Source: Clostridiales bacterium
GTDB lineage: Bacteria > Bacillota > Clostridia > Christensenellales > Aristaeellaceae
Direction of reading: 5' to 3'
DNA length: 53,104 bases
Assembly (NCBI GenBank): GCA_015056015.1
Contig: SVHD01000010.1
Location: forward strand, 1-53,104
The translations under genes and the position numbers were made by a program. This document shows positions 5,246 to 53,013 of this stretch, in pieces; within the stretch, counting starts at the first letter, position 1, and each line of letters opens with the position of its first letter. The notes under the pieces are model-generated. The model was not told where the DNA came from. It was given only the letters and a program-made list of their open reading frames with translations, and ran no database searches.

Positions 5246-5307
5246 CTGGGGGAACCGTTCTTTGTGGCCAAAGAACGGTTTCCCCAGGCCCCTTCCAAGA
5301 AAGCCGT
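5246..5307 (+). repeat. Hairpin element copy B1 (short tail)
   Basis: Left arm CTGGGGGAACCGTTCTTTG (5246-5264), loop TGGC, right arm 5269-5287, then only the first 20 nt of the conserved tail (CCCCTTCCAAGAAAG). The outer pairs C-G and T-A replace the G-C and C-G of most copies, a compensatory change. It begins 18 nt after the telA stop, in the same orientation. Confidence 0.88.
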
Positions 5308-5439
5308 TCGGGAATGTAGCGGTCGGGATGATTCGGCCATGTGCCCGTGCGGCGTGAAATGACGATTTATTCCAAGGGTATCCAATTTTTATATTGCTTC
5401 GTGGGGAAATTGTTTCTTTGAAATAAGCCAAGGAATAAT
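5308..5439. other. Intergenic spacer between two opposed hairpin elements
   Basis: I see no coding sequence here. Together with B1 and B2 it makes up the 317-nt gap between telA and the LemA-like gene. Confidence 0.5.
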
Positions 5440-5505
5440 CCATACCGCTTTCTTGGAGGGGGGCGGGGGGAACCATTCTTTGGCGACAAAGAATGGTTCC
5501 CCCCG
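5440..5505 (-). repeat. Hairpin element copy B2, inverted
   Basis: Reverse copy: tail remnant (CCGCTTTCTTGGAGGGG) first, then a perfect hairpin with arms 5464-5482 and 5487-5505. It points against the downstream LemA-like gene, one of the few copies not lying 3' of a gene on its own strand. With B1 it forms an inverted pair about 180 nt apart. Confidence 0.88.
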
Positions 5506-5544
5506 AATACATCCTCATCCCCAATTCCCTCCGGAGGAAGAAAG

Positions 5545-6081
5545 ATGAAGTTGCGTGCAGGTGCCGCATTTTTTTTAATGATTTTGATGGTGCTCTTCGG
5601 CGTCGTATTTGGCGCGTATCGCGGCTGGAATGAAGAGCGGGCCATGGTAGAGGAAACCTGGGCCGGGCTGGAAAGCATGCTTCAGGCGCGGGTGGAATCG
5701 GCGTATAATGTGCTGACGGTGGCCGGGCGGCATTTGCCCCAGGATCACGAGGCCGTAGTGCGCCTGCGCAATGCCCGGGATACGCTGGAGGGGGAAAATT
5801 CCCTTTCCGAAAAGGCGGCGGCCAATGAAGAATTGACCCGGGCGGCGAAGGACGTGCTTGCGCTGCTGGTGGAAACGCCAAGCGTGCAGCAGGACAGCCG
5901 GGACAGGATGTATGCGGAAAGCTATCTGCCCCAGATGCTGGCCCAGAGCGAGGAAAAAACGGCGGGCGCCCAATACAATATTGCGGCGGCCCAATTTAAC
6001 GAGCGATTAAGCGCCAGCCTCAGCGGGAAGATTGCATCCCTGCTGGGCATTGAAATGGCGGAAGAATTTATTGCGCCGTAA
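5545..6081 (+). CDS. LemA-family membrane protein (divergent)
   Basis: Protein of 178 residues with one N-terminal membrane segment (about 5-24). A helical region follows (ETWAGLESMLQARVESAYNV), corresponding to the LemA core usually written as AW..ID.QL..R..LIPNLV. The C-terminal YNIAAAQFNERL...IASLLGI matches the LemA signature of Y-N-x-A-V-x-x-Y-N followed by F-P-x-x-x-A-x-x-x-G. The start at 5545 has GGAGGA at 5533-5538. It is followed after 14 nt by a TPM-domain gene, the classic LemA-TPM pairing. The family's function is uncertain; membrane-associated stress and envelope roles are proposed. Confidence 0.78.
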   Translation: MKLRAGAAFFLMILMVLFGVVFGAYRGWNEERAMVEETWAGLESMLQARVESAYNVLTVAGRHLPQDHEAVVRLRNARDTLEGENSLSEKAAANEELTRAAKDVLALLVETPSVQQDSRDRMYAESYLPQMLAQSEEKTAGAQYNIAAAQFNERLSASLSGKIASLLGIEMAEEFIAP

Positions 6082-6095
6082 AGGGGGAAAAATCG

Positions 6096-6839: not shown

Positions 6840-6842
6840 GCA

Positions 6843-8033: not shown

Positions 8034-8055
8034 TTCCGCTTTTCAAGCCCCGGGC

Positions 8056-8083
8056 TTGACATATGGAAAGAACATGGTATCCT
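8056..8083 (+). promoter_or_regulatory. Promoter for the metallo-hydrolase gene
   Basis: TTGACA at 8056-8061, a 16-nt spacer and TATCCT at 8078-8083, in the 96-nt gap before the gene at 8130. Confidence 0.65.
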
Positions 8084-8129
8084 AAAAGAAGGAAGGGAAA
8101 TTTTCCTTTCCATCCAAAGGAGTGATCGC

Positions 8130-8987: not shown

Positions 8988-9011
8988 CGAAAAGAAAGGG
9001 AGGAAAAGAAA

Positions 9012-10443: not shown

Positions 10444-10545
10444 CACTGGCATTCAAGCCGATTAGAATAGGTCAATAAAATCCAGGATAGCTTTTCGGAG
10501 GGGGCGCGGGGGAACCACTTTTGGCATCAAAAGTGGTTCCCCCGC
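10444..10545 (-). repeat. Hairpin element copy C
   Basis: Full-length reverse copy: CACTGGCA end at 10444, conserved tail with TTAGAATAG and ATCCAGGATAGC, then hairpin arms 10506-10523 and 10528-10545 (GCGGGGGAACCACTTTTG, loop GCAT). The apical ACTTTTG/CAAAAGT pairs are a covariant version. On the minus strand it starts 23 nt after the GH35 stop codon. Confidence 0.92.
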
Positions 10546-10568
10546 AATATTCTCCCGTCCAAATCCGT

Positions 10569-12452
10569 TTACGCGTAGAAGATGTTATCATCCATGATGC
10601 ATTCCACGTTTTCCTTGAGGGAATCCAATTTGACCTCGGGGCAGAACTGGGGCGTGGGCCACTGGCCATCGGAGTAGAGTTCAAACACTTCGATGGTATT
10701 TTCTTCTTTCATGATATCCCCGGGGATATAGAGGGTATCCTGGGGCCCGATGCACCAGTAGCGGCCCAGATTAAATCCGTTCACCCGGATAAAGCCCTTT
10801 TGCAGATTGCTCTTGCCATCCACGCGATAGTCAATCACCGCGTCCTGGCCGGGGGTGCCCTTGAAGGAACCGGTAAAGAAGCGGGGGCCAACGCCGGGGG
10901 CGCAATCGGCGGGGGTATTTTGCATCAGCTGATTCAGGACAGGATCCCGCATGGGCAGGGAACGGATTTCCCAATTGGTGACAAAGGCCACGCCCCGCTT
11001 GATGCGCACGGGATTGAGAATGCCCTTGTAATCCTGCTCCAATTGATAGCCAAAGCAGATGCGGCCCATATTTTCCACCAGGATATCCAGGCGCATGGTT
11101 TCCTTGGTGATCTTGAAGGGGATGGGCTCGTAGGCGCGATCCCGGTAATAGGTGCCCTTGTAAACGCCGTCCATGTAAATATCCGCCCGGTCATGCAGCC
11201 CGTCAATGAGCAGCATGAATTGCTCTTCCGGATCGGTGCGAAGCAGCGTGGTGGAATAGAGAATCCAGCCGTAATCCTGATTCAGGGATTCCATGGGCCG
11301 CACATTGCCGGCCTTTACTTTCTTTTCGGTGAGATAATCCAGGGTTTCGGGGGCGAAAAGCCGGCGGCTTTCCTGCCAAACGATTTCCCCGGGGATCTGC
11401 ACCGGCATATCGGCGGGAACGGGGGGCAGATCCTTCACATCCATGCCCCGGTATTTGGCCAATACTTCCCGGCAGAGGAAATATTTCTTCGTGGGCCGGC
11501 CCATTTCATCCACCGGCGCATCCACGTCATAGCTGGTGCCGTAGGGCACATAGCGGGGCTTGGATCCGGGGGGATCGGCGCGGAAGGTGCCGATCATGGA
11601 GCCGCTGAAGAAACCGTAATTGGTGCCGCCGCAGAACATATAGAAATTCACATAGGCCCCGGCCTCCAGGGCCTGGCGATAGGTTTCCGCCACCTCTTCC
11701 GGGGGCTTGCGCAGGAAATAGCCGCCCCACTGCTGGGCGCGGCCGCCCCAGTATTCGGCCACATAATCCGGGAAGCCCTGCTGGAATTTGCGCATATTCT
11801 GAATAGCGCCGGGGATATTGCCGCCCACATCCATGGCGGACCAGATTTCCGGGAAGCCGCCGTATACCTGCATATACATGCAATCGCCGCCGGCGGTATA
11901 GAGCGGCACATCAATGCCGTTTTCCCGGTGGATTTTTTCGCAGTAGCGGATATATTCCAGATCCATGGCGAAGCTGCCGTATTCATTTTCCAGGGCCACG
12001 GCGATGATGGGGCCGCCGTTGGTGGAAAGCATGGGCACGAATTCCTGGCAGAGACGCTTGAAATATTCGGTGTAATGGCGGATGTAGGGCTCATCCATGG
12101 TGCGCAGGCATACATCCTTTTCCAGCAGCCAGTAGGGCAGGCCGCCCAGATCACATTCGGAGCAGATATAGGGCGCGGGCCGCAGCATCACATACAGCCC
12201 TTCCTCCTGGCACATCTGCAGGAAGGCCTTTAAATCCAGCCGGCCGGAGAAATTATACTGCCCCTTTTCCGGCTCATGCAGATTCCAGGGCACATAGGTC
12301 TGCACCGCAGTGAGGCCAAAGGCCTTCATCAGCTTCAGCCGATGCCGCCAGCCGCCGGGCTGATACCGGAAATAATGCATGGAACCGGAGGCCAGATAGA
12401 ATTCCTTGCCGTCAATGAATAATTTGTTGCCTTCATAGGTGAGCAAAGACAT
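10569..12452 (-). CDS. GH35 beta-galactosidase
   Basis: Protein of 627 residues with the GH35 catalytic TIM barrel in the first half: YVPWNLHEPEKG (about 53-64), RPAPYICSECDLGGLP (about 91-106), the acid/base glutamate in ALENEYG (Glu about 157) and the nucleophile region AEYWGGRAQQWG (Glu about 233). The C-terminal half carries the jelly-roll domains usual for the family, ending with a GFNLGRYW motif. There is no signal peptide, so it is a cytosolic enzyme acting on imported beta-galactosides. The start at 12452 is chosen over 12470 because the AGGGGGA ribosome site lies between them. Its promoter is at 12491-12519, and element C follows its 3' end. Confidence 0.92.
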   Translation of the reverse strand: MSLLTYEGNKLFIDGKEFYLASGSMHYFRYQPGGWRHRLKLMKAFGLTAVQTYVPWNLHEPEKGQYNFSGRLDLKAFLQMCQEEGLYVMLRPAPYICSECDLGGLPYWLLEKDVCLRTMDEPYIRHYTEYFKRLCQEFVPMLSTNGGPIIAVALENEYGSFAMDLEYIRYCEKIHRENGIDVPLYTAGGDCMYMQVYGGFPEIWSAMDVGGNIPGAIQNMRKFQQGFPDYVAEYWGGRAQQWGGYFLRKPPEEVAETYRQALEAGAYVNFYMFCGGTNYGFFSGSMIGTFRADPPGSKPRYVPYGTSYDVDAPVDEMGRPTKKYFLCREVLAKYRGMDVKDLPPVPADMPVQIPGEIVWQESRRLFAPETLDYLTEKKVKAGNVRPMESLNQDYGWILYSTTLLRTDPEEQFMLLIDGLHDRADIYMDGVYKGTYYRDRAYEPIPFKITKETMRLDILVENMGRICFGYQLEQDYKGILNPVRIKRGVAFVTNWEIRSLPMRDPVLNQLMQNTPADCAPGVGPRFFTGSFKGTPGQDAVIDYRVDGKSNLQKGFIRVNGFNLGRYWCIGPQDTLYIPGDIMKEENTIEVFELYSDGQWPTPQFCPEVKLDSLKENVECIMDDNIFYA

Positions 12453-15232: not shown

Positions 15233-15297
15233 GCCATCCCCTCCGCTTGATGATATGCAGAGAAGAGGGATATATGCGGGAGGGGGATGTAAATGAT

Positions 15298-15495
15298 GCG
15301 GGGGAAACCATTCTTTGAAGTGGCATCGCATGCCCTGCGCGCTGCTTGCGCATGCTTTCTTCGTTTGCGTTGATGACCGTTGCCGCGTCACAAACCCCTC
15401 TGGGTTTGTTCCTGAGAACGGTTTCCCCCGCGCCCCTTTCCAAGAAAGTCGTACTGGATATTTCTGATGTTTTCTAATCGGCTTGGATGCCAGTG
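15298..15495 (+). repeat. Hairpin element copy D with loop insert
   Basis: Left arm GCGGGGGAAACCATTCTTTG (15298-15317), an insert of about 95 nt in the loop, right arm ending TTTCCCCCGC (15431), then the full tail with TACTGGATATTTCTGAT and TTCTAATCGGCTTG to TGCCAGTG at 15488-15495. It lies upstream of the flippase start rather than 3' of a same-strand gene. Module F1 follows immediately. Confidence 0.9.
15318..15415 (+). repeat. Loop-insert module, copy in D
   Basis: Conserved ends GCATCGCATGCCCTGCGC and GCCGCGTCACAAACCC...GGGTTTGTTCCTGAGA flank a variable centre. It contains its own small hairpins (CATGCCC/GCGCATG region and ACAAACCC/GGGTTTGT). Found in the same loop position in copies H, O and Q. 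Confidence 0.85.
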
Positions 15496-15501
15496 GAGCT
15501 T

Positions 15502-15560
15502 GGGGAACGTATGGGGCTTATTCAGCCCCAAACCCCGAACCAGGGTCATTGACACTGAAG
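15502..15560 (+). repeat. Module F, copy 1 (3' end altered)
   Basis: Begins GGGGAACGTATGGGGCTTATT. The hairpin GGGGCT-TATTC-AGCCCC is intact. The second hairpin is broken here (CCAGGGTCATTGACACTGAAG, against CATTGACCCTGG in the other two copies). Confidence 0.88.
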
Positions 15561-15671: not shown

Positions 15672-15692
15672 AAGCATGGGGATAACGTCAGC

Positions 15693-15951
15693 AGCCACGG
15701 GCTGGGCGGCATAAATGCCGCCCGCCGGATGCATTGCATCCGGGAAAACAAAAAATAACGGCGCGGGAGAAAATAAATTTTCTCCGCCGCCGTTTTTTGT
15801 TTTCATCTCGCCCGTGGCGATGTTTGATTCGTTACTTCAAGTTTCGTGCGGAAAGCGTTTGTATTTTCCCACCCAAGTCATTTCGCAAACCGGAGTCCAG
15901 AGGAGGGACTCCTCTGGCGCAGGGGTACGGGGGCCGCGGAGGCCCCTGCTC
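15693..15951. repeat. Structured module G, copy 1
   Basis: An outer stem GCCACGGGC (15694-15702) / GCCCGTGGC (15810-15818) encloses three hairpins: GGGCGGCA/TGCCGCCC, CCGGATGCA/TGCATCCGG, and a long GAAAACAAAA.../...TTTTGTTTTC hairpin. A second half follows with CCAGAGGAG-GGA-CTCCTCTGG and GCAGGGG.../...CCCCTGC. Nearly the same module lies at 34302-34572. Both copies sit just beyond the 3' end of a minus-strand gene, here 58 nt from the stop at 16010. Whether it acts as RNA (on which strand) or DNA is unknown. Confidence 0.88.
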
Positions 15952-16663: not shown

Positions 16664-17341
16664 GTGTATTTACTGGAAACCCATGTGCATACGGCGGGGG
16701 TAAGCGCCTGCGCCCATTCCACACCGGAAATGGTGATGGAGGCCTATGTGAAGGCGGGCTATCATGGCATGGTAGTCACCAATCATATCAATAATCAAAC
16801 CTATAAAACCATGGAAGAAAAAAGCTGGGAAGAAAAGGTGGCCCATTTTATGGGCGGCTATCGGGCGCTTTGCCAGGCGGCAAAGGGGCGGATGGATGTG
16901 CTGCTGGGCTGCGAAATCAATCTGAACGGCGAGGGCAATGATTACCTGATTTACGGCGTGACGGAAAAATGGCTGCTGGAATTGGGCGATCCCAGGAATA
17001 TGCGCCTGAAGGAACTGAGCGGACGGGTGCGCCAGGATGGATTGATGATCTTCCAGGCCCATCCCTTCCGCTATGGCATGACCCTCAAACGGGAAGAATG
17101 GCTGGATGGGGTGGAGGTATTCAACGGCAACCCCAACCACGATTCCCATAACTATCTGACGGAAATGTGGGCCAGGGAAAAAAAGCTGCGCCGCATTTCC
17201 GGCTCGGATTACCATAACCCCGACAGCCTTCTGGGCGCGGGCATCCGGACGGAGGAAAGAATCCGGAATAATGAAGAATTGCTGGAAATCCTGCGCGCAG
17301 AAAAATATCAGCCCGTCTGCGAGGCCCATCTGCCGGAGTAA
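16664..17341 (+). CDS. PHP-domain phosphoesterase
   Basis: Protein of 225 residues of the PHP superfamily. Metal-ligand motifs: ETHVHTAG (about 5-12), VVTNH (about 36-40), the glutamate of LLGCEINLNG, QAHPFRYG (about 129-136) and GSDYHNP (about 183-189). The start is GTG at 16664 with AAGGAGG 9 nt upstream (16648-16654). The ATG at 16657 is out of frame, and the open frame upstream to 16397 has no suitable site. PHP proteins of this size hydrolyse phosphate monoesters or act in histidinol-phosphate-like or nucleotide metabolism; the substrate is not clear. Element H follows. Confidence 0.85.
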   Translation: MYLLETHVHTAGVSACAHSTPEMVMEAYVKAGYHGMVVTNHINNQTYKTMEEKSWEEKVAHFMGGYRALCQAAKGRMDVLLGCEINLNGEGNDYLIYGVTEKWLLELGDPRNMRLKELSGRVRQDGLMIFQAHPFRYGMTLKREEWLDGVEVFNGNPNHDSHNYLTEMWAREKKLRRISGSDYHNPDSLLGAGIRTEERIRNNEELLEILRAEKYQPVCEAHLPE

Positions 17342-17357: not shown

Positions 17358-17580
17358 GATTTTCTGGGGGAACCATTCCGATTTTCTGGGGGAACCATTC
17401 TTTGTAGGGGCATCGCATGCCCTGCGCGTTGCTTGCGCATGCTCTCTTCGTTTGCGTTGATGGCCGGTACCGCGTCACAAACCCTCCGGCTTTGCTCCTG
17501 AGAATGGTTCCCCCAGCCCCCCCTCCAAGAAAGTCACTCTGGATTTTTATTGACTTTTCCGATCAACTTGCGTGCCAGTG
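17358..17580 (+). repeat. Hairpin element copy H with loop insert and duplicated arm
   Basis: The left arm plus its lead (GATTTTCTGGGGGAACC) is present twice in tandem (17358-17378 and 17380-17400). The element proper runs from CTGGGGGAACCATTCTTTG at 17386 through a loop insert to the right arm at 17501-17516 and the tail ending TGCCAGTG at 17573-17580. It follows the PHP gene, same strand. Confidence 0.9.
17405..17500 (+). repeat. Loop-insert module, copy in H
   Basis: Very similar to the D insert: GCATCGCATGCCCTGCGC, TTGCGCATGC, a TTCGTTTGCGTTGATG centre and GCGTCACAAACCC, with CTTTGCTCCTGAG at the end. Confidence 0.85.
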
Positions 17581-17713: not shown

Positions 17714-17736
17714 CGATTCAATATAGATTTGATTTT

Positions 17737-18031
17737 CACTGGGAATCAAGTTATTAGAAAAAATTAGCAATGCCCAGTACAGCTTTCTTGGAGGGGTGCG
17801 GGGAGGGAACGTTTTTGGTTTGTATTGCCCCACTGGCACACAAGCTGATTCAGCGAGATTCAGCAATAACCAGTACAGCTTTCTTGGAGGGTGCGGGGAG
17901 GGAACGTTTTTGGTTTGTATTGCCCCACTGGCACACAAGCTGATTCAGCGAAATTCCCTAATACCCAGTATAGCTTTCTTGGAGGGGGTGCGGGGGAACC
18001 ATTCTTTGGCTTCAAAGAATGGTTCCCCCGC
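17737..18031 (-). repeat. Hairpin element J: two truncated tandem units and one full unit
   Basis: Three head-to-tail reverse units: 17737-17830, 17831-17925 and 17926-18031. Units 1 and 2 are nearly identical from CAGTACAGCTTTCTTGGAGG onward and have lost the right arm, ending in GGGAACGTTTTTGG-TTTGTATTGCCC. Unit 3 has a perfect hairpin (17990-18008 / 18013-18031, GCGGGGGAACCATTCTTTG). On the minus strand, unit 3 begins 21 nt after the stop of the ROK-like gene. The rest of the 711-nt gap from 17342 holds element H and the terminator at 17681. Confidence 0.92.
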
Positions 18032-18052
18032 AAATACCAATATTAAATCCCT

Positions 18053-19429
18053 TTATTCCCCCAGATCGGGCAGGCTGGCGGCGGCCACGCTCTGGCCCAC
18101 GCGGCGGGAATTTTCATCGGGGATATGGAGCGTGATCTTTTCAGCCAGCTCGGGGAATTCCTTGTCCAATACTTCCTGGGCCTTGGCAAGCAGCAGCGCG
18201 CCGCCCTCGCCGGAGGTGACGCGGCCCATGATCAAAACATGATCGATATCATAGAAGCGGGCATACCAGGCGATGGAATAGCCAAAGTATACGCCGATGG
18301 ATTCGTAAATCTTGGCGGCCTCGGGATTGCCGGCGATCATTTCCTTCTGCACCACCTTCAGCTTTTCGGCGGGAGAAAGGGATTCATCCAGCTGGATGCC
18401 GGCGGCAGGCGCCAATTTGATCACGCCATCCTGAGAGAAATATTTTACGCCGCAGCCCCAATCGCCGCTCCATTCATCCACCATGGCGTCGCGATTGAAA
18501 TCCACGGGGGCGAAGGCCAGTTCATTGAGCCAGCCGGTGATATTCATATCCTTGTCCACATAGCCGCCGGCCTCGCTGGTGCCCATGGCGATGCCCAGCA
18601 CATTGCCAACGCCCAATTCCATGGCCCCGGCCAGGGCGGTGACGTCGCCGTCGTTGGCCACTTCCAGGGGCGCGCCGATTTCCTTGGCCACGTCAATATA
18701 CATGGATTTGACCTTCTTGGCGAAATCTTCTTTGCTCACCTTCAGGAAGAGAGAAGCCACCATGATCTTGTTATCAATATATACGCCGGCAGAAGAAACG
18801 CCGATGGCGTCCACCCGGGGCATATGGCTGGCGGCGCTCTTCATGGCGGAGAGGATGCCGTCGTAATGATACTGGGGATCGGAATTGATCTTGGGGAACC
18901 AGACCACTTCTTCGGAATAAACCGCTTCGCCATCGATGACCGCGGATACCTTCCGATCGCTTCCGCCGGCGTCAAAGCCGATGCGGCAGCCCTTCAGATG
19001 CCGGCCTACGCTGCTGGCGGAGGAACGGGAAATCTTGACTTCATCCAGGGTTTCCGCATATTCCACTTCAAAGGGGCGTTCGTATACGGTGGCCATGAAA
19101 TCGGCGTCAAAGGCGCGCTCGCCGCCTTCCTGATAGGCAGCCTTGAGATGCTCATAAACGGATTTGGAACCGTGCACCACGATCTTGTAGCCGCCACGGG
19201 CCCAGAGCATAGTCTTTACCAATCGATCCATCAGCGGCACAGTGCGCGCATCTTCGCCATCGGCAAATACCTTGCCCACATAATGATCGCAATAGCCCTG
19301 ATTGCGCAGAATCAATACGCCGAAATCCACCGCATTGGCGCTGGCAGCCGCGGCCTTTTCATAGGCGCGCATTTCAATTTCCAGGGGACGGAAGCCGGGA
19401 TCCAGGGGGGCGAGAACCTTCAAACTCAT
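18053..19429 (-). CDS. ROK-like sugar kinase with N-terminal extension
   Basis: Protein of 458 residues. The ASKHA ATPase fold starts only at about 149: phosphate-1 motif IGFDAGGSDRK (about 150-160), VANDGDVTALAGAME (about 257-271), phosphate-2 motif GIAMGTSEAGGYVD (about 277-290) and a C-terminal VLIMGRVTSGEGG adenosine segment. The layout recalls ROK glucokinase or N-acetylglucosamine kinase, but the usual ROK zinc motif C-x-C-G-x-x-G-C is not visible and residues 1-148 are an unrecognised extension. AAGGAGG precedes the start at 19429. It lies downstream of nagA on the same strand, so phosphorylation of an amino sugar is a reasonable inference. Confidence 0.75.
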   Translation of the reverse strand: MSLKVLAPLDPGFRPLEIEMRAYEKAAAASANAVDFGVLILRNQGYCDHYVGKVFADGEDARTVPLMDRLVKTMLWARGGYKIVVHGSKSVYEHLKAAYQEGGERAFDADFMATVYERPFEVEYAETLDEVKISRSSASSVGRHLKGCRIGFDAGGSDRKVSAVIDGEAVYSEEVVWFPKINSDPQYHYDGILSAMKSAASHMPRVDAIGVSSAGVYIDNKIMVASLFLKVSKEDFAKKVKSMYIDVAKEIGAPLEVANDGDVTALAGAMELGVGNVLGIAMGTSEAGGYVDKDMNITGWLNELAFAPVDFNRDAMVDEWSGDWGCGVKYFSQDGVIKLAPAAGIQLDESLSPAEKLKVVQKEMIAGNPEAAKIYESIGVYFGYSIAWYARFYDIDHVLIMGRVTSGEGGALLLAKAQEVLDKEFPELAEKITLHIPDENSRRVGQSVAAASLPDLGE

Positions 19430-19698: not shown

Positions 19699-19760
19699 TA
19701 TCCGAATAGGTTTTCGGGAGGGTGCGGGAGGGTGCTTTTGTCTCAAAAGCATCCTCCCGC
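19699..19760 (-). repeat. Hairpin element copy K (short tail)
   Basis: Tail remnant TATCCGAATAGGTTTTCGGGAGG, then arms GCGGGAGGGTGCTTTTG (19724-19740) and 19744-19760, with one wobble pair. On the minus strand it begins 11 nt after the nagA stop codon. Confidence 0.85.
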
Positions 19761-22868: not shown

Positions 22869-22885
22869 TGGAGGACGAGAATCTT

Positions 22886-22994
22886 GCGGGGGAAACCATT
22901 CTTTGTGCCCAAAGAATGGTTTCCCCCGCACCCCTTTCCAAGAAAGTCATTCTGGCTATTACTGGATGCCATGGAATCAAGCTGTGTGCCAGTG
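22886..22994 (+). repeat. Hairpin element copy L
   Basis: Perfect 20-bp arms GCGGGGGAAACCATTCTTTG (22886-22905) and 22910-22929 with loop TGCC, then the tail CACCCCTTTCCAAGAAAGTC to TGCCAGTG at 22987-22994. It starts 17 nt after the acetyltransferase stop. Confidence 0.93.
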
Positions 22995-24178: not shown

Positions 24179-24193
24179 AAAATATTATAGTTA

Positions 24194-24298
24194 CACTGGT
24201 ACGCAAGCCGATTAGATGGCAACCCGAAACATCCAGAGCCAGTTTTCTTGGGGTGGGTGCGGGAGGGGATTTCTTTTTCAAAAGAAGTCCCCTCCCGC
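24194..24298 (-). repeat. Hairpin element copy M
   Basis: Reverse copy with CACTGGTA end at 24194, CGCAAGCCGATTAGA tail and ATCCAGAGCCAGTTTTCTTGG, then arms GCGGGAGGGGATTTCTTTT (24259-24277) and 24280-24298, paired with one wobble. It opposes both flanking plus-strand genes, so it is an exception to the 3'-end rule. It lies just upstream of the pyr promoter. Confidence 0.9.
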
Positions 24299-24328
24299 AA
24301 TTTTCTCCGTTCTTCCCTTCTCCCCCCA

Positions 24329-31807: not shown

Positions 31808-31827
31808 TAGGGAATCGGGGAAATATC

Positions 31828-31930
31828 GCGGGAGAACTTTTCTTTTGAAAAAGAAAAGCCCTCCCGCACCCACCCAAAGAAAACTGATTCTGGATTTTAC
31901 TGTTGGCATTTATCAAACTGCGTGCCAGTG
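31828..31930 (+). repeat. Hairpin element copy N, inside the pyr operon
   Basis: Arms GCGGGAGAACTTTTCTTTT (31828-31846) and AAGAAAAGCCCTCCCGC (31851-31867), then a tail (TTCTGGATTTTAC, CAAACTGCG) to TGCCAGTG at 31923-31930. It begins 20 nt after the pyrF stop and separates pyrF from pyrE, so it may divide the operon transcript. Confidence 0.9.
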
Positions 31931-33950: not shown

Positions 33951-33977
33951 TTGGGGAACGGGGGAACGGGAGATTTT

Positions 33978-34170
33978 GCGGGAGGAGGCTTTTGAAAAGC
34001 ATCGCATACCCTGCGCTGCGCTTGCGTATGCTCCTTGCTTCAGCAATGATGGCGCTTGCCGCGTCACAAACCCTCCGGGTTTGTTCCTGAGAAAGGCTTC
34101 CCCCGCGCCCCTTTCCAAGAAAGTCGCTCTGGATTTTTATGGACGATTCTAATCTGCTTGCGTGCCAGTG
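33978..34170 (+). repeat. Hairpin element copy O with loop insert
   Basis: Left arm GCGGGAGGAGGCTTTTG (33978-33994), loop insert, right arm GAAAGGCTTCCCCCGC (34091-34106), then the tail (TCTGGATTTTTATGG, TTCTAATCTGCTTGCG) to TGCCAGTG at 34163-34170. Arm pairing is less perfect than in insert-free copies. It follows pyrI; module F2 follows directly. Confidence 0.9.
33995..34090 (+). repeat. Loop-insert module, copy in O
   Basis: GCATCGCATACCCTGCGC, GCTTGCGTATGC, a variable centre (CTTGCTTCAGCAATGATG) and GCCGCGTCACAAACCC, with GGGTTTGTTCCTGAG at the end. GCATAC/GTATGC replaces the GCATGC/GCATGC pair of D and H, which keeps pairing. Confidence 0.85.
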
Positions 34171-34176
34171 ATACTT

Positions 34177-34246
34177 GGGGAACGATGGGGCTTATTCAGC
34201 CCCAAACCCCGAACCAGGGTCATTGACCCTGGACCCAGTAGCGGAA
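34177..34246 (+). repeat. Module F, copy 2
   Basis: GGGGAACG, hairpin GGGGCT-TATTC-AGCCCC, spacer AAACCCCGAA, palindrome CCAGGGTCATTGACCCTGG, then ACCCAGTAGCGGAA. Identical over most of its length to copy 3 at 53020-53089. Confidence 0.92.
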
Positions 34247-34301
34247 CGAACAAACTTTTCTGACAAACAATTTCCCGCTGAAAAGTCGGGAACGTGTGGA
34301 T

Positions 34302-34572
34302 AGCCACGGGCTGGGCGGCATAAATGCCGCCCAGCGGATGCAAAGCATCCGAGAAAACAAAAAGAACGGCAACGGAGAGAATGAATTCTCTCCCGTGCCG
34401 TTTTTTTGTTTTCGGTTGGCCCGTGGCTCATTTCAATCGTTTTTTAAAATGATCGTTTCTTCAAGTTTCGTGCGGAAAGCGTTTGTATTTTTCGCCAATC
34501 CATTCGCAAACCGGAGTCCAGAGGAGGGACTCCTCTGGCGCGGGGGTACGGGGGCCGCGGAGGCCCCTGCTC
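34302..34572. repeat. Structured module G, copy 2
   Basis: Outer stem AGCCACGGGC (34302-34311) / GCCCGTGGCT (34419-34428) encloses hairpins at 34312-34333, 34335-34351 and 34353-34413. The second half has a perfect 9-bp hairpin at 34518-34538 and a GC-rich hairpin to 34572. Compared with G1, several paired positions change together (for example ACGGCG/CGCCGT to ACGGCA/TGCCGT, and AGAAAAT/ATTTTCT to AGAGAAT/ATTCTCT). It ends 2 nt from the stop of the minus-strand mutarotase gene. With O and F2 it fills the 624-nt gap. Confidence 0.9.
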
Positions 34573-45199: not shown

Positions 45200-47272
45200 A
45201 TGCAGAAAAAACGGAAGCAAAGTGTATTAAAAAGCTATCTGATCACCTATGTGGGCCTGGCCGTGGCGGTTTGCGCGGTGCTGGGCGTGGTGCTGATGAT
45301 GGTTTCCTCCAATAATCTCAAAAAGCAGGAGGAAAAATCCATCCTGGATCGCCTGAGCAGCGCGGGCGAGGATTTTTCCTATCAGATGGAGATCATGAAT
45401 GATCTGAAAATCCAGGTCTACACTTCGCCTTTGTATCAGCCCTTCAATCTGAAGAAAAATGAAATTCCCCGCTTGGAAATGCTGGAGCATTTCAAAACCC
45501 TGGCCAGCCCCAGCACCATTACCAGCAATTGCTATCTGGTATATGAAGAAAGCGAAACCATTTATTCTGCCACCGGCGCCATGAGCCCGAATATTTTTTG
45601 CCGTTTTCTGGCGCCCGGAATTAGTGAAAATGAATTTTGGAGCCAAGTGCTCTCTGAAAATACAGTGATCGTGCTCAACAGCACGCAGGGAACGCAGATT
45701 TATCGCAAGCTGCCCATTACCTTTAACCGCTATTCCCAAAATACCCGGGCATTTATTCTCTTCCAGATCGATCAGGAGGAATTGGCCCGGCGATATGAAA
45801 ACCTTTTCCGTTTTAACGATAATCTGATCTTGCAGGTGGATGATCTGTATCTGCTGGGCAATGAGCGTATGATTCCCACCATTCTGCATCAGGCCAAATA
45901 CCATGATGAAACGATCATGATCGGCGTGCAGACGACAGAGGATGATGCATCCGCCGTTTACAGCATGCTCTATATTCTCATTGGCTGCACGCTGATTTTC
46001 TCCGTGATTTCGGCCTATCTGGCCTATCGCAATTACAGCCCCATCCGCGGCCTGGCCAGCAAGATGGAAAATCATGCCCCCGTGGCCGGGGATGAAATCG
46101 AAAGAATCGCCCATGCAGTGGATCATGTGATTCAGCTCAATACCGCCACCATGGCCCAGCTTTCCGAAAGCCTGGAAAATGCATCCCGGATGAAGGAATC
46201 CTTAAAGCAGCAGCTGCTGCTTCTGGTGCTCAGCGGCGAATACGACGCCACCATGAATCAGCGCATGGCGGAACTGGGCATGGATGCGACGGGGAAATTG
46301 CTCTGCGTGGCCCATATCACCTATGATCCCGCCGTTTCCACGGAAGTGCTGCAGAAAAAAATGGATGGCCTTTCCGACAGCGATACCAAATTGCATCTGG
46401 CCCGGCTGGGCGGCGAAAGAGGCTGGGCGCTGCTTTTCATCGCCCGGGATGAAGAAAACCTGATGGCCGCCTTCGATACCGTCAGTGAAGATCTGACCCG
46501 GGATTTCCCGGATCTGCATCTGACCCAGGGCGAAAACTGCACCCAGCTGCAGAAGCTGGCCTATTCCCTGGCCGTGGCGGAATCCAATCAGAACCGGGAT
46601 CCCGATTCGCCCCTGGAAAATGCCCAGCTGTATGATTTGCTGGGCGAATTGAAAAAGCATCTCAATGACGGCAGCGAAATTCAGGCCCTGAGCACCCTGG
46701 ATCATCTGATGGATTGCATGGACAGGGATTATCCCTCCCTGATGTTCCGCCGCTATCGGCTGGTGGACGTGACCTATCAGATCATGGAATGCGGCAGAAA
46801 TGCGGGCTGCCAGCTGGAAGAAGAGCAGATGCGAAACGCCATTACCGTGCAGGATGGCATGGAAATCCGCAATACGCTGGAAGATGCGGTGAAGAAAATC
46901 TGCGCGGCTTCCCCCAAGGCGGCCATCCAGATTCCCCAGATTTCCCAGCAGGTGATGGATTATATCGAGGCCCACGCCACCGATTATAATATCTGCCTGG
47001 ATTCTGTGGCCACTGCCTGCGATATTTCTACCAAGCAGGTCAGCCGGATTGCCCGCAATGTGGTGGGCATGAGCTTTAAGGAATATGTATCCCATCTGCG
47101 GATGCGCAAGGCCATGGCGCTGCTGAAGGCCGGCCTTTCCGCCACCGATACCTCCCGCCAGGTGGGCTATTCCGATATTTCCCATTTTACCAAGGTTTTC
47201 CGCGGCCATACCGGCGTTACCCCCGGCCAATACCGCAGCCAGTACAACGGCGATGCGGACGAAGAGGCGTGA
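45200..47272 (+). CDS. AraC-family regulator with membrane sensor domain
   Basis: Protein of 690 residues. Two membrane segments (about 13-36 and 260-283) flank an extracellular sensing region of about 220 residues. A HAMP-like linker (YRNYSPIRGLASKME) follows, then a cytoplasmic region. At the C-terminus (about 590-685) is a double helix-turn-helix AraC domain: ICLDSVATACDISTKQVSRI and the second helix pair ending DISHFTKVFRGHTGVTPGQYR. Such one-component sensors sit beside LplABC-type transporters and activate them in response to a sugar. The start at 45200 is chosen over 45161 because GGGAGG at 45184-45189 is 10 nt upstream. Confidence 0.9.
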   Translation: MQKKRKQSVLKSYLITYVGLAVAVCAVLGVVLMMVSSNNLKKQEEKSILDRLSSAGEDFSYQMEIMNDLKIQVYTSPLYQPFNLKKNEIPRLEMLEHFKTLASPSTITSNCYLVYEESETIYSATGAMSPNIFCRFLAPGISENEFWSQVLSENTVIVLNSTQGTQIYRKLPITFNRYSQNTRAFILFQIDQEELARRYENLFRFNDNLILQVDDLYLLGNERMIPTILHQAKYHDETIMIGVQTTEDDASAVYSMLYILIGCTLIFSVISAYLAYRNYSPIRGLASKMENHAPVAGDEIERIAHAVDHVIQLNTATMAQLSESLENASRMKESLKQQLLLLVLSGEYDATMNQRMAELGMDATGKLLCVAHITYDPAVSTEVLQKKMDGLSDSDTKLHLARLGGERGWALLFIARDEENLMAAFDTVSEDLTRDFPDLHLTQGENCTQLQKLAYSLAVAESNQNRDPDSPLENAQLYDLLGELKKHLNDGSEIQALSTLDHLMDCMDRDYPSLMFRRYRLVDVTYQIMECGRNAGCQLEEEQMRNAITVQDGMEIRNTLEDAVKKICAASPKAAIQIPQISQQVMDYIEAHATDYNICLDSVATACDISTKQVSRIARNVVGMSFKEYVSHLRMRKAMALLKAGLSATDTSRQVGYSDISHFTKVFRGHTGVTPGQYRSQYNGDADEEA

Positions 47273-47299
47273 GAAAGGGATACGGGTTGACGGAAAAAT

Positions 47300-47402
47300 G
47301 CGAGAGGGGCTTTCTTTTGAAAAAGAAAGCCCCTCTCGCGCTCTCCCCAAGAAAACTGCCTCTGGATTTTTCAGGTGTGTTCTGATCGACTTGAATGCCA
47401 GA
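47300..47402 (+). repeat. Hairpin element copy P
   Basis: Arms GCGAGAGGGGCTTTCTTTT (47300-47318) and 47322-47339; the GAGAG/CTCTC lower stem is another compensatory variant. The tail (CCCCAAGAAAACTGCCTCTGG) runs to TGCCAG at 47397-47402. It starts 27 nt after the AraC-type gene. Confidence 0.9.
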
Positions 47403-47466
47403 GGGGCAATGAGAAACTTGGATGCCAAAGGGGCAATGTGAAATTTGGATGCCAGAGGGACAATAT
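47390..47466 (+). repeat. Three tandem copies of the tail end, about 27 nt each
   Basis: Units at 47390-47416, 47417-47443 and 47444-47466 share TTGGATGCCAGAGGGGCAAT with a few differences. The unit is the last part of the element tail plus adjoining bases, so the tail end itself has been multiplied. Confidence 0.88.
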
Positions 47467-47515: not shown

Positions 47516-47520
47516 CTATA

Positions 47521-47799
47521 CTGGGATGCAAGTTGATAAGACGACGTTTTGTAATATCCAGAATGATTTTCTTGGGGAGGATACGGGAGGGATTTCAGGA
47601 GCAAACCCGGAGGGTTTGTGACGCGGCAACGGCCAAACGTGCAAGTGCAGAGAGCATACGCAAGCGCAGCACAGGGTATGCGATCAGGAGCAAACCCGGA
47701 GGGTTTGTGACGCGGCAACGGCCAAACGTGCAAGTGCAGAGAGCATACGCAAGCGCAGCACAGGGTATGCGATGCTATTCAAAAGAATACCCCTCCCGC
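47521..47799 (-). repeat. Hairpin element copy Q with duplicated loop insert
   Basis: Reverse copy: diverged tail (GGGATGCAAGTTGATAAG, ATATCCAGAATGATTTTCTTGG), left arm ACGGGAGGGATTTC near 47583-47595, two loop inserts, right arm AAAAGAATACCCCTCCCGC ending at 47799. On the minus strand it begins 15 nt after the ypeB stop. Confidence 0.88.
47596..47773 (-). repeat. Perfect 89-bp tandem duplication of the loop insert
   Basis: 47596-47684 and 47685-47773 are identical by eye. Read on the minus strand each copy runs from ATCGCATACCCTGTGCTGCG to CACAAACCC...GGGTTTGCTCCTG, with a centre (TGCACTTGCACGTTTGGCCG) unlike that of D, H and O. Identity implies a recent event. Confidence 0.92.
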
Positions 47800-49110: not shown

Positions 49111-49123
49111 GCTTTTTCCTCCC

Positions 49124-49891: not shown

Positions 49892-49946
49892 AAATTGATA
49901 ATGTGTATTCTTATGCCCGTTTGGGTCTGGATGGAGGTTTTGCCCG

Positions 49947-52889
49947 ATGCGTTTTCCGATTTATCGCCGGTTGATTGCCCTGGCGCTGGCGCTATGCTGT
50001 GCGCTGCCTGTTTTGGGTGCTGCTGCGGCCAATTATCCTTTTGTGGGCTTTACCACGGATAGCCTGCGCCTCAGGAAGAGCCCCAGCGATACCGCCGCCG
50101 TGGTCTGCACCATCCCCCAGGGAGACGCCGTGCTGATCAACGGCGAAAGCGGCAGTTATTATATTGTGATTTATGAAGGAAATCAGGGCTATGCGCTCAA
50201 GCGCTATATTTCCGCCAATGTGGATTCCTATGTGCAGCCCACGGATGCGCCCGCCGTTCAGATGCCGGTTGGCACGGCCTATACCCTGCTGGCCTCCGGC
50301 GAAAGCGGGGACGCCGTGATCGTTTTGCAGGAGGCCCTGGATGAACTGGGCTTTTATTCCGGCGCCGTGGACGGAAAATTCGGCGCCGGCACGCAAAAGG
50401 CATTGATCGCCTTCCAGAAGAAAAATAATCTTCCCCAATCCGGCGTGGCCGATGGGGCTACCCAGGAATTGCTCTTTGAAGGCAAGCCGAAAAACAGCCG
50501 TGGCAAGGCCGTCACGGTGAAAACCGTTTCCTATCTGGAAAGCGCGGTGATTGCTTCCGGCAGCATGGGCAGCGAAGTGGAAAAGCTGCAGAGCCGGCTG
50601 AAGCTGCTGGGCTATTATCAGAGCGGCATCGACGGCCAGTGCGGCAATGGCACGGTGAAGGCCATCAAGGCATTCCAGAAAAAGGCGGGCCTTTCCCAGA
50701 CCGGCAAGGCCGACGCCCAGACCAAGGCGCTGCTGTATTCCGCCGCCGCCCCCTATGCCAATGCCACCGCCACCCCCAAACCCACCGCAACCCCCAAGCC
50801 CTACGCCACCTATGCGCCTTCCGCCACGGAAAAGGCCGCTTATCCCTTTGAAAGCTATACCCTTTCTTCCGTCAATCTGCGGAAAAAAGCCTCCACCACC
50901 AGTACCCGGCTGATGACCATTGCCAAGGGCGAGGGCATCACGGTGCTTGCCATGGAAGGGGATTATCTGAAAATTTCCTGCAAGGGGCTGACCGGCTATA
51001 TCGTGGCGGAATATGCCTATATTCCCGCCCAGTATCTGCCCGGCAAGGATCTGGTCACCGATAGCGAGGCCCAGGCCAATTATCCCTATCTGCGCAGCGG
51101 CTCTGTGGGCAAGAATGTGACTGCCCTGCAGGAAGCGCTGAAGGAACTGGGCTTTTATACCGGCGCCGTCAGCGGCGCATATGACGCCGCCACCCTGTCT
51201 GCGGTGAAGGCCTTCCAGAAGAAAAACGGCCTGAAGCAGGATGGGGTGACCACCCCGGAAATGCAGCAATTGATCTTTGAAGAAAAGCCCCTGAACAGCC
51301 GGGGGAAAAAGACCAATGTGAAGACCCTGCCCCCCATTGACGGCTATGAAATGCGGCTCAATGATAAGGGTGCGGCGGTATCCCAGCTGCAGCAGCAATT
51401 AAAGAATCTGGGCTATTACAAGAAGGAAATCACCGGCACCTTTGACAGTGCCACCCAGAAGGCGGTGCGCGCCTTCCAGACGGAGCATAATCTGTATGTG
51501 GACGGCGTAGCGGGCAAAAAGACCCAGACCCTGCTTTCCGCCCTGGCGGCCCCCATGCCCACCCCCAATGTTTATCAGCCCGGCGTTGTTGTGCCCACCA
51601 ATACCCCCCTGACGGCGGATAACGTGATTATCATGCAGAACGGCACCCGGGGCACTGCGGTGGAACGGCTGCAGAAGCGGCTGATGGAGCTGGGGTATTA
51701 TACCTGCACGGCCGACGCCATTTATGACAGCGATGATATTGCCGCGGTGAAGGCGTTCCAGAAAAAGAACGGCCTGAAGATCGACGGCATTGCGGGGCTG
51801 GATACCCAGCTGCGGCTCTATTCCGCCACCGCCATTCCCGCCACCACCGTGGCCCTGCCCCTGCCCACCATGGCCCCTGCCACCGCCACCCCCGCCCCCA
51901 TTCTGGAAACCCTGCGGGTAGGCAGCAGCGGCCAGGCAGTCATCGCCCTGCAGACCCAGCTGACCACCTATGGCTATTACAGCGGCAAAATTGACGGCAT
52001 TTTCGGCACCGGCACCGCCGCCGCCGTTACCCGTTTCCAGCGGGCCAATGGCCTGAAGGCCGACGGCGTGGTAGGCGAGGGCACCCGCAATAAGCTCAAC
52101 GGTATCGACGGCGTGGTTATGATGGCCACCCCGGCCCCCGCTGCCACCGCCACCCCGGCGCCCCTGGAAACTGTGCGCGAATTGGAAGTGGGCGATAAGG
52201 GCGAAGCCGTTACCGCCATGCAGAAGCGGCTGGTGGAGCTGGGCTATCTCAATGCTGCCGACGGCATGTATGGCCCCCGCACCTATAATGCGGTGGTGGC
52301 CTTCCAGAAGCGAAACGGCCTGACCGCCGACGGCATTGCGGGCAAAATGACGCTGACCCGCCTGAAATCCGCCGCTGCCATTCCGGCCAACAACAGCATT
52401 GTGGTAAATCCCGGCAATTCCAACACCAATACCGGCAATGGCGTATTTACCCCGCCGGACGCCGCCGAAGTGCGCTATGCCAACTGGTTCACCGAAATCC
52501 GCGCCCGGGCCAAGCTGATGCCCGATGTGGTGATCTATGATCCCGATTCCGGGCTGCATTTCAATCTGCATATGTTCTCCTTCGGCAAGCATGCCGATTC
52601 CGAGCCGCCCACGGAAGCGGATACCGAAATCCTGTATCAGATCAACGGCAAGGATAACTGGGATCCCAAGTATGTATGGGTCATTTTCTCCGATGGCCGG
52701 GTGTATATCGCCTCCATCCACAGCAATGGCCATACCGTGGATCATACCAACTCCAATGGCATGACCGGCCATATCTGTCTCCACTTCCCCCGGATTATGT
52801 CCGAAGCGGAGGCCACCGGCCCCTATGCCGTGCGCCATCAGAAGGAAATCCTCTATGGCTGGGAACTGACCCAGGCCATGGCGCGGTGA
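49947..52889 (+). CDS. Secreted protein with two SH3-like and seven peptidoglycan-binding repeats
   Basis: Protein of 980 residues with a signal peptide (about 1-28). Order: SH3-like domain (about 30-92), two PG_binding_1 repeats (about 112-175 and 208-268), a Thr/Pro/Ala linker, a second SH3-like domain (about 292-355), two more repeats (about 375-435 and 468-530), a linker, one repeat (about 555-620), a linker, one (about 650-710), a linker, and a seventh (about 748-808). Each repeat has the LQ..L..LGYY...DG..G..T..A...FQ..NGL..DG pattern. Residues 842-980 are an unnamed C-terminal domain with a His/Cys-rich GHICLHFPR segment (about 941-949), which I take to be catalytic or metal-binding; similar ends occur in other clostridial wall proteins. 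Element R follows. Confidence 0.88.
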   Translation: MRFPIYRRLIALALALCCALPVLGAAAANYPFVGFTTDSLRLRKSPSDTAAVVCTIPQGDAVLINGESGSYYIVIYEGNQGYALKRYISANVDSYVQPTDAPAVQMPVGTAYTLLASGESGDAVIVLQEALDELGFYSGAVDGKFGAGTQKALIAFQKKNNLPQSGVADGATQELLFEGKPKNSRGKAVTVKTVSYLESAVIASGSMGSEVEKLQSRLKLLGYYQSGIDGQCGNGTVKAIKAFQKKAGLSQTGKADAQTKALLYSAAAPYANATATPKPTATPKPYATYAPSATEKAAYPFESYTLSSVNLRKKASTTSTRLMTIAKGEGITVLAMEGDYLKISCKGLTGYIVAEYAYIPAQYLPGKDLVTDSEAQANYPYLRSGSVGKNVTALQEALKELGFYTGAVSGAYDAATLSAVKAFQKKNGLKQDGVTTPEMQQLIFEEKPLNSRGKKTNVKTLPPIDGYEMRLNDKGAAVSQLQQQLKNLGYYKKEITGTFDSATQKAVRAFQTEHNLYVDGVAGKKTQTLLSALAAPMPTPNVYQPGVVVPTNTPLTADNVIIMQNGTRGTAVERLQKRLMELGYYTCTADAIYDSDDIAAVKAFQKKNGLKIDGIAGLDTQLRLYSATAIPATTVALPLPTMAPATATPAPILETLRVGSSGQAVIALQTQLTTYGYYSGKIDGIFGTGTAAAVTRFQRANGLKADGVVGEGTRNKLNGIDGVVMMATPAPAATATPAPLETVRELEVGDKGEAVTAMQKRLVELGYLNAADGMYGPRTYNAVVAFQKRNGLTADGIAGKMTLTRLKSAAAIPANNSIVVNPGNSNTNTGNGVFTPPDAAEVRYANWFTEIRARAKLMPDVVIYDPDSGLHFNLHMFSFGKHADSEPPTEADTEILYQINGKDNWDPKYVWVIFSDGRVYIASIHSNGHTVDHTNSNGMTGHICLHFPRIMSEAEATGPYAVRHQKEILYGWELTQAMAR

Positions 52890-52908
52890 GGTTGGAAATA
52901 TAATATTT

Positions 52909-53013
52909 GCGGGAGGGGTATTCTTTGTAGCCAAAGAATACCCCTCCCGCGCCCTCCCCAAGAAAGCTGTACTGGATTTTTAGGGACTATTCTAATCCGC
53001 CTCCGTGCCAGTG
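52909..53013 (+). repeat. Hairpin element copy R
   Basis: Perfect 19-bp arms GCGGGAGGGGTATTCTTTG (52909-52927) and 52932-52950 with loop TAGC, then the tail (CCCCAAGAAAGCTGTACTGG, TTCTAATCCGCC) to TGCCAGTG at 53006-53013. It begins 19 nt after the preceding stop codon. Confidence 0.93.

What the first reader, a model, noticed from the sequence alone, without database searches (positions are those of the whole stretch)
5246..53013. Dispersed hairpin-plus-tail element, about 18 copies in 53 kb, not recognised
Seen directly: copies A, B1, B2, C, D, E, H, J (three units), K, L, M, N, O, P, Q and R share a GC-rich stem of 17-20 bp (typically GCGGGGGAACCATTCTTTG), mostly with a loop of about 4 nt in the insert-free copies, and a tail CC(A)AGAAAG...CTGGAT...TTCTAATC..CTTGCGTGCCAGTG. 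Arms differ between copies but stay paired (GGAACC/GGTTCC, AGGGGT/ACCCCT, GAGAGG/CCTCTC, CACTTTTG/CAAAAGTG, CT...AG for GC...GC). Pairing kept while sequence changes implies selection on the folded form. Such density recalls REP/BIME families, but I do not know this sequence.
Basis: partly seen in the sequence, partly recalled or inferred. Interest (0 to 1): 0.88.

Follow-up and report, generated by a model that had tools for sequence, protein, structure and literature searches.

The report
Triple-stranded hairpin repeat between genes
A gut bacterium's genome is dotted with short DNA elements just past gene ends in which a hairpin, its loop and the neighbouring tail change together between copies and species, as if the tail folded back to form a three-stranded helix that selection keeps.

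Summary
In detail: 18 copies in the window, 149 distinct places in a capped genome list that misses 11 of those 18. The conserved unit has three strands. About 15 nt beside the hairpin mirror the adjacent arm, so they are complementary, in parallel, to the far arm. They end in a triplet that pairs with the loop (pseudoknot). When arms change, this third strand changes too (127 copies, z 13.5; other transforms not raised). In 37 inverted pairs of unlike copies it fits its own hairpin 66 times, the partner's once, ties 7. Loop-tail pairs covary. The purine tract switches arms half-way and the third strand switches chemistry with it: the pattern of a two-domain triple helix. R2 finds it in 28 of 29 genus genomes and 17 of 248 sampled from the order. 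Nearest known kinds: intrastrand triplex motifs (TMECO/PIT) and REPINs; no Y1 transposase in the own, incomplete assembly. No triplex was measured. Whether DNA or RNA folds is open; I favour single-stranded DNA of a mobile, REPIN-like element.

The parts
3..49 (+). copy cut by the contig start (partial hairpin, third strand CCCCCTCC-GAAAAC); tail beyond 49 not examined
   Evidence: inverted repeat I15
5245..5314 (+). copy: left arm 5245-5264, loop 5265-5268 (TGGC), right arm 5269-5288, third strand 5289-5302 (CCCCTTCC-AAGAAA), pseudoknot triplet 5303-5305 (GCC, pairs with loop GGC)
   Evidence: 17 nt after the stop of the gene ending at 5227
5438..5506 (-). copy, inverted partner of 5245-5314 (tail to tail), hairpin outermost, upstream of the next gene (ATG 5545)
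10444..10546 (-). copy with upper arm CTTTTG matched by third strand GAAAAG; 22 nt from the stop of the minus-strand gene 10569-12452
15297..15497 (+). copy with one ~93-nt insert in the hairpin loop
15566..15671 (+). copy (GGGAGGGA-type arm, third strand CCCACCCC-AAGAAA)
17385..17580 (+). copy with one 93-nt insert in the loop; follows the gene ending at 17341
17735..17820 (-). half unit: one arm plus third strand and tail
17830..17915 (-). half unit, 95-nt tandem neighbour of the previous one
   Evidence: (D17)
17926..18032 (-). complete copy, inverted partner of 17385-17580; 20 nt from the stop of the minus-strand gene 18053-19429
19706..19760 (-). copy with CTTTTG upper arm and third strand CCCTCCC-GAAAAC (tail limits not examined)
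22885..22994 (+). copy 16 nt after the stop at 22868
24192..24299 (-). copy of the TTCTTTT / AAGAAAA type before the gene at 24391
31827..31930 (+). copy of the TTTTCTTTT / AAAGAAAA type after the stop at 31807
33977..34170 (+). copy with one insert in the loop, after the stop at 33950
47299..47403 (+). copy of the GAGAGGGG / CTCTCCCC type after the stop at 47272
47518..47799 (-). copy with two tandem 89-nt inserts in the loop, inverted partner of 47299-47403
52908..53013 (+). copy 18 nt after the stop at 52889

Best explanation
The repeat is a non-autonomous, dispersed intergenic element. Its functional unit is a single strand that folds into a hairpin with a third strand laid along it. Shown by sequence: (1) two arms of 17-21 bp; (2) about 15 nt beside the hairpin that follow, in mirror order, the adjacent arm, with a short skip where the purine tract changes arm; (3) a triplet after it that pairs with the last three loop bases; (4) frequent tail-to-tail doubling, hairpins outward, in intergenic regions next to gene ends. 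Inferred: the third strand sits in the major groove and forms about 14 base triples, in a pyrimidine-type and a purine-type block, and the loop pairing locks it. Inferred with less certainty: the fold matters when the DNA is single-stranded (replication or strand transfer), so that the element spreads and persists as a REPIN-like unit moved by an unidentified enzyme. It is tolerated just beyond stop codons, where it disturbs neither genes nor promoters.
For: Third-strand tracking: T matches the mirror of its own arm (mean 9.38) better than shuffled arms (7.82, sd 0.12, maximum of 2000 shuffles 8.20; 127 distinct copies kept of 142 extracted); genus relatives 46 of 50, z 9.2; G051 of another family 35 of 45, z 5.8. 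37 tail-to-tail pairs of unlike type: own 66, partner 1, tie 7. Upper-arm types whose mirrored run lies in T, genus copies: AAGAAA 119 of 124, GAAAA 40 of 41, AAAGAAA 41 of 43, GAGAAA 15 of 18. 34 hairpins from 11 genomes of other genera: 7.50 against 5.94 (sd 0.23, max of 3000 6.75). Pseudoknot on 139 distinct rows: 132 of 137 (best of 5000 shuffles 117), 117 of 134 (101), 126 of 137 (125, mean 120.6). Strand switch: in 247 of 287 copies the first 7 nt of the lower left arm above the base are all purine. Turnover: beyond the gene 4010-5227 only this species of 27 resolved has a complete pair (by eye). DNA rather than sense RNA: A.C-type mispairs exceed G.T-type 48 to 13 in 99 own copies, next to stops and starts alike; 33 to 15 in relatives.
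Against: No physical measurement. In G047 the tracking test is flat (z 1.0; 24 nearly uniform copies). In G051 the direct (z 3.4) and complement (z 4.2) transforms also rise, and the direct one (z 3.9), so low complexity adds signal there. Copies within a subfamily, and close genomes at tpiA (14 of the 37 pairs), are not independent. A fourth loop-tail pair is not supported (82 of 134, shuffle mean 81.9), and the TTTCTTTT subfamily shows no clear loop-tail pairing. C-rich third strands need protonated C if the hairpin-first strand folds (recalled). Wobble in the lock points to the opposite strand from wobble in the stem (G.T type 15, A.C type 9), and many A.C mispairs share few sequence contexts. 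At pgk-tpiA 19 of 22 resolved genomes keep the element or remains (by eye), which also fits a useful function. No mobilising enzyme was identified.
Confidence: 0.55

Rival explanations
1. RNA module: the same fold works in mRNA. The copy after a stop codon caps the 3' end of the upstream message, and the inverted copy before a ribosome-binding site caps the 5' end of the downstream message, so the pair brackets a spacer that can be cut.
For: Outer hairpin edge lies a median 18 nt after a stop codon (74 copies) or a median 82 nt before a start (23 copies); 1 of 102 copies in divergent regions although 44 of 198 intergenic regions of 80 nt or more are divergent. Pair kept between pgk and tpiA in many species. 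Read from the other strand the order third strand-hairpin is the H-type pseudoknot topology with loop 1 in the major groove (recalled for telomerase RNA; SAM-V, PMC6061858, start of abstract in listings 71 and 79).
Against: Mispairs do not follow transcription: in the 36 copies that both neighbours would transcribe hairpin-first, A.C+C.A 21 against G.T+T.G 5, the reverse of what sense RNA would prefer. The G-rich purine-motif block is not known to me for RNA (recalled).
Confidence: 0.3
2. Plain member of the known intrastrand triplex motifs (TMECO/PIT): a G/C-rich triplex-prone repeat with no role beyond local genome instability.
For: Same three-block layout, intergenic, inverted doublets, and a deletion that leaves one hairpin (G004 at tpiA; similar deletions are reported for E. 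coli).
Against: TMECO has 9-nt blocks with one purine strand; here about 14 triplets in two blocks with a strand switch, plus a pseudoknot that covaries.
Confidence: 0.1
3. Ordinary REP/BIME hairpins; the mirror likeness is a by-product of low-complexity G/C and A/T runs inherited as blocks.
For: Arms and tails are built from short runs; copies within a subfamily share history; other transforms also rise in G051 (direct z 3.4, complement z 4.2) and in the cross-genus set (direct z 3.9).
Against: In the own genome and its genus only the mirror transform rises; own-versus-partner test 66 to 1; I know of no copying process that makes mirror repeats.
Confidence: 0.05

Closest known systems
Intrastrand triplex motifs of bacteria: TMECO / PIT elements (Holder et al. 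2015, PMC4666352; abstract, start of introduction, three results sections and first part of discussion read)
   Same: Hairpin plus third strand on one strand; intergenic; many copies; some in inverted pairs; in E. coli, deletions in such pairs that can leave a hairpin.
   Different: TMECO: 9-nt blocks, one purine strand, G-rich third strand, 23 copies in MG1655. Here: about 14 triplets, purine tract switches arm and the third strand switches chemistry, a 3-bp loop-tail lock, several arm/third-strand types that change together, more than 149 places in one genome.
REPIN / BIME (Bertels and Rainey 2011, PMC3116915; abstract and outline seen)
   Same: Extragenic palindromes in inverted doublets, spread within genomes, non-autonomous.
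   Different: No Y1 (RAYT-type) transposase found in the own assembly; third strand and pseudoknot; transposase and element do not match in distribution over the genus.
[quoted passage not shown] telomerase RNA, recalled)
   Same: Loop strand lies along a stem and is locked by pseudoknot pairing.
   Different: Those are defined RNAs (recalled: with few triples); this is a dispersed repeat with a 17-21-bp stem.
H-DNA mirror repeats (introduction of PMC4666352)
   Same: Mirror symmetry of arm and tail.
   Different: H-DNA is described there as a homopurine/homopyrimidine mirror repeat in duplex DNA; here a hairpin is already present and the purine strand alternates.

Membership tests
Intrastrand triplex motif (TMECO/PIT) | Three consecutive blocks on one strand: two arms and a third strand | tested here: met
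   (sequence pattern only)
Intrastrand triplex motif (TMECO/PIT) | One homopurine strand throughout the stem (one triplex class) | tested here: not met
   purine tract changes arm within the stem; lower left arm purine, upper left arm pyrimidine
Intrastrand triplex motif (TMECO/PIT) | Forms a stable triplex in vitro (CD, NMR) | not testable with these tools
   needs oligonucleotide experiments
REP / REPIN / BIME | Extragenic palindromes in inverted doublets | tested here: met
   100 of 102 copies outside called genes; neighbours in one intergenic region: +- 21, ++ 4, -- 1, -+ 0
REP / REPIN / BIME | Cognate RAYT (Y1_Tnp, PF01797) in the genome | tested here: not met
   0 matches in the own assembly (84.5% complete, so not final); 10 of 29 genus genomes have one, while 28 of 29 have the element
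Any Rfam 15 family | Score above the family's gathering threshold | tested here: not met
   0 matches in the window; for 5200-5560 eight matches at E up to 1, all far below threshold, e.g. MIR7533 46 of 230 bits
Intrinsic terminator | Hairpin followed at once by a T run | tested here: not met
   on the tail side the hairpin is followed by the C-rich third strand in the 36 copies; the other side was not scored
MITE of a DDE transposon | Terminal inverted repeats with target-site duplications | not tested
   inverted ends present; relatives without the pair were too diverged by eye to read duplications

The most novel reading that the evidence does not exclude
A natural alternate-strand triple helix locked by a pseudoknot, kept by selection in several families of a bacterial order and used as a matched pair to cap both ends of messages: one copy after the upstream stop codon, its mirror partner before the downstream ribosome-binding site.
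Probability: 0.25. Interest if true: 0.93.

Novelty: new variant of a known kind. Interest (0 to 1): 0.82.

Why it matters
Whether intrastrand triplexes form in cells and are selected for is open: a well-characterised bacterial motif forms a triplex in vitro, but its authors' in vivo footprinting did not support stable formation (PMC4666352). Here comparative sequence gives independent evidence: concerted change in three strands over several types, species and genera. It also predicts a longer architecture with two triplex chemistries and a lock. The predictions are concrete, about 70 nt each, and easy to test.

Tried and rejected
First covariance model (R1) had only 8 pairs because the aligner shifted arms of unlike length; replaced by R2 from 11 equal-length copies. 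RAYT association: not supported. The idea that the third strand pairs with the partner copy rather than its own hairpin: not supported. Sense-RNA wobble: tested and not seen, but the reverse sign in the pseudoknot stops me from naming the folded strand with confidence. A fourth loop-tail pair: not supported. Inversion of the tpiA intergenic block between G014 and G010/G020: whole-block scores favour inversion (260 against 186, 259 against 198) but the inner spacer does not (19 against 29, 21 against 40), so left open (which then stopped with a script error on G004 after printing the sequences). Search of 80 named tpiA loci for the element: of 46 hairpins tested 5 scored 7 or more and none looks like a clear case; one weak look-alike in L219. 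Literature: 8 searches of the held library; in their listings nothing close appeared except the intrastrand triplex paper. Filters used before counts: copies needed a G-rich left arm, at least 5 C in the first 10 nt after the hairpin and an A/G run in the next bases; the run filter dropped 12 of 142 own, 3 of 50 genus, 1 of 25 G047 and 10 of 45 G051 rows, and duplicates were then merged.
Full report
WHAT IS THERE. The window is one whole contig of a 2.9-Mb, 106-contig assembly, 84.5% complete. The nearest named triosephosphate isomerase kept by the search is 77% identical, from a Clostridia assembly from roe deer omasum (records very near the window may be left out there), so I place it in class Clostridia by inference. 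The window holds 18 copies (see parts). Structure model R2 (11 equal-length copies, 20-bp hairpin plus 26 nt) gives 150 matches in the genome, the cap: 149 places, since one is an opposite-strand reading of another. Only 7 of the window's 18 copies are in that list, so the true number is higher.

THE THIRD STRAND. Reading the copies side by side showed that the bases after the hairpin are not arbitrary. Where the left arm is GGGGAGGG-A-TTCTTT the tail is CCCCTCC-AAGAAA. GGGAGGGG-TA-TTCTTT goes with CCCACCCC-AAGAAA, GAGAGGG-CC-TTTCTTTT with CTCTCCC-AAAGAAAA, GGGGGAACCA-CTTTT with CCCCCTCC-GAAAA, and in relatives AACCG-CTCTTT with CC-GAGAAA. The tail is the mirror image of the right arm, equal to the same-direction complement of the left arm. 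This is the relation expected of a third strand in a triple helix; I know of no copying process that makes mirror repeats. In a shuffling test on 127 distinct copies of this genome (142 extracted, 12 dropped by an A/G-run filter, 3 merged) the mean mirror score was 9.38 against 7.82 (sd 0.12, maximum of 2000 shuffles 8.20), z 13.5; direct z 0.5, reverse complement -5.3, complement -2.3. Genus relatives (46 of 50 rows): mirror z 9.2, others 0.6 or below. G051 of another family (35 of 45 rows): mirror z 5.8, but direct 3.4 and complement 4.2 as well. G047 (24 of 25 nearly uniform rows): mirror z 1.0. Upper-arm types whose mirrored run is found in the tail, genus copies of the four commonest types: AAGAAA 119 of 124, GAAAA 40 of 41, AAAGAAA 41 of 43, GAGAAA 15 of 18; in G047 and G051 the upper blocks agree only in their run of A.

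INDEPENDENCE. Subfamilies are inherited as blocks, so copies are not independent. Three checks help. First, 37 tail-to-tail pairs in which the two copies are of unlike type: the third strand fits its own hairpin better in 66 of 74 cases, the partner's in 1, with 7 ties; 14 of the 37 are the tpiA place in different species, some of them close. Second, 34 hairpins from 11 genomes of other genera, taken without a mirror or A-run criterion from loci that R2 had found (R2 itself holds the tail consensus): mirror 7.50 against 5.94 (sd 0.23, maximum of 3000 shuffles 6.75), z 6.8; direct z 3.9. One of these, in G074, shows new letters and the same rule: GGGGGG-TA-TTCTTTTTTC with CCCCCC-AAGAAAAAAG. Third, at one orthologous place, between the upstream gene (pgk by recalled C-terminal motif) and tpiA, species carry different types and the third strand follows in the copies printed, apart from degenerate ones such as G013 and G027 (by eye).

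THE LOCK. The last three loop bases pair with the triplet after the third strand. On 139 distinct aligned copies 132 of 137 pair at the middle position (G-C 105, A-T 24, C-G 2, G-T 1; best of 5000 shuffles 117), 117 of 134 at the outer position (G-C 59, A-T 43, G-T 9, T-G 5, C-G 1; best shuffle 101) and 126 of 137 at the inner one (mean 120.6, best shuffle 125). A fourth position is not supported (82 of 134, shuffle mean 81.9). The tool count agrees: stem 96.7% paired with 14 of 20 pairs changed on both sides; lock 84.3% with all four positions counted. The alignment was fitted to the hairpin model, which knows the stem but not the lock. The TTTCTTTT subfamily has no clear lock.

GEOMETRY. The purine tract lies on the left arm in the lower half and on the right arm in the upper half; in 247 of 287 copies the first 7 nt of the lower left arm above the base are all purine. 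The third strand is C/T over the first half and A/G over the second. At Watson-Crick pairs aligned with it, the third base is C on 1462 of 1507 G-C pairs, T on 394 of 452 A-T pairs, A on 1220 of 1225 T-A pairs and G on 282 of 425 C-G pairs (C on 126 of these, the skip region), with 14 aligned triplets per copy (median, 266 copies). The alignment chooses matches, so these figures are upper bounds. Orientations fit both classical motifs: pyrimidine third strand parallel to the purine strand, purine third strand antiparallel (rules in PMC4666352). This is a two-domain, alternate-strand arrangement; the term is recalled, and a listing shows it in work on designed oligonucleotides.

PLACE IN THE GENOME. 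With self-trained gene calls on 21 stretches (window plus 20, about 450 kb), 100 of 102 copies lie outside genes. The hairpin edge is a median 18 nt after a stop codon (74 copies), or a median 82 nt before a start codon (23 copies). Only 1 copy has starts on both sides, although 44 of 198 intergenic regions of 80 nt or more are divergent. Neighbouring copies in one region are tail to tail in 21 of 26 cases, head to head in none.

SPREAD. R2 matches 28 of 29 genomes of the genus (G018 has none), 0 of 7 genomes of other genera of the family and 3 of 24 genomes of other families (one of them a single weak match) in a first sample. In 248 genomes drawn from the order, with stricter filters, 17 are positive, in 12 of 115 genera, among them 3 genomes of other genera of the family. 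Turnover is visible: beyond the gene at 4010-5227 only this species of 27 resolved regions has a complete pair; G002 has a lone hairpin, some others (G013, G024, G012, G016, G008) hairpins that may be remains, the rest nothing or unrelated inverted repeats (read by eye). At tpiA, 19 of 22 resolved genomes have the element or remains of it, and in G004 only a single hairpin with both outer flanks is left (by eye). Five of the 27 tpiA loci could not be resolved.

DNA OR RNA. Mispairs in the stems are A.C+C.A 48 against G.T+T.G 13 in 99 own copies, 35 to 8 next to stops and 13 to 5 next to starts, 21 to 5 in the 36 copies that both neighbours would transcribe hairpin-first, and 33 to 15 in relatives. 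That is the opposite of selection for G.U in sense RNA and fits folding of the strand with the third strand first. But distinct sequence contexts are few, and in the three lock positions the wobble goes the other way (G.T type 15, A.C type 9). I therefore favour single-stranded DNA only moderately.

KNOWN KINDS. Closest are the intrastrand triplex motifs (PMC4666352; abstract, start of introduction, sections on abundance, G/C-rich motifs and the E. coli motif, and discussion part 1 read). They share layout, inverted pairs and deletions that can leave a hairpin; they lack, as described there, the strand switch, the length and the lock. REPINs (PMC3116915, abstract and outline seen) share the inverted-doublet organisation; the transposase test fails in the own assembly. 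Rfam has no match at its thresholds. I saw no description of this element in the listings of 8 literature searches of the held library.

WHAT REMAINS INFERENCE. That three strands really stack into a triple helix; which strand does so, and as DNA or RNA; what moves the element; and whether hosts use it.

Noticed in passing
window 15322-15414, 17408-17500, 33999-34089, 47596-47775: An 89-93-nt module sits inside the hairpin loop of some copies, often in tandem. It has 45 matches in the genome; of 21 arrays in the 30 fetched loci and the window, 17 lie between complementary arms (7 nt or more) and 8 have more than one unit.
   Followed up: partly
window 34109-34246 and 52952-53089; 15500-15560: A second repeated block follows some tails (GGGGCTTATTCAGCCCC ... 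CAGGGTCATTGACCCTGG), 90% identical over 138 nt between two places.
   Followed up: no
window 15680-15804 and 34296-34407: A third block (GGGC.GGGCGGCATAAATGCCGCCC ... long hairpin ending in a T run) lies downstream of copies, possibly a shared terminator module.
   Followed up: no
L097 1546-1581 (G051): In this G051 copy the third strand can also pair with the sequence after it (CCCCACCCTTCTA / TGGAAGGGTGGGG), so that it could switch between two folds.
   Followed up: no
L298, L302, L315 (G020, G007, G004), also the tpiA upstream regions of G007 and G022: The same intergenic positions in relatives hold other inverted elements whose arms are short tandem repeats such as GGGATTA or AAGTAGG.
   Followed up: no
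L308 and L313 (G010, G014): Yet another inverted intergenic element with CTTCCCCTTGAGGGGAAG ends at the place where this genome has the repeat pair.
   Followed up: no
L179 (G004), upstream of tpiA: Only a single hairpin with both outer flanks is left where related genomes have the pair, as if deleted through its own palindromes.
   Followed up: partly
window 50326-52323: The gene at about 50043-52889 carries at least five degenerate direct repeats, one reading FQKKNGL, reminiscent of peptidoglycan-binding repeats (recalled, not searched).
   Followed up: no
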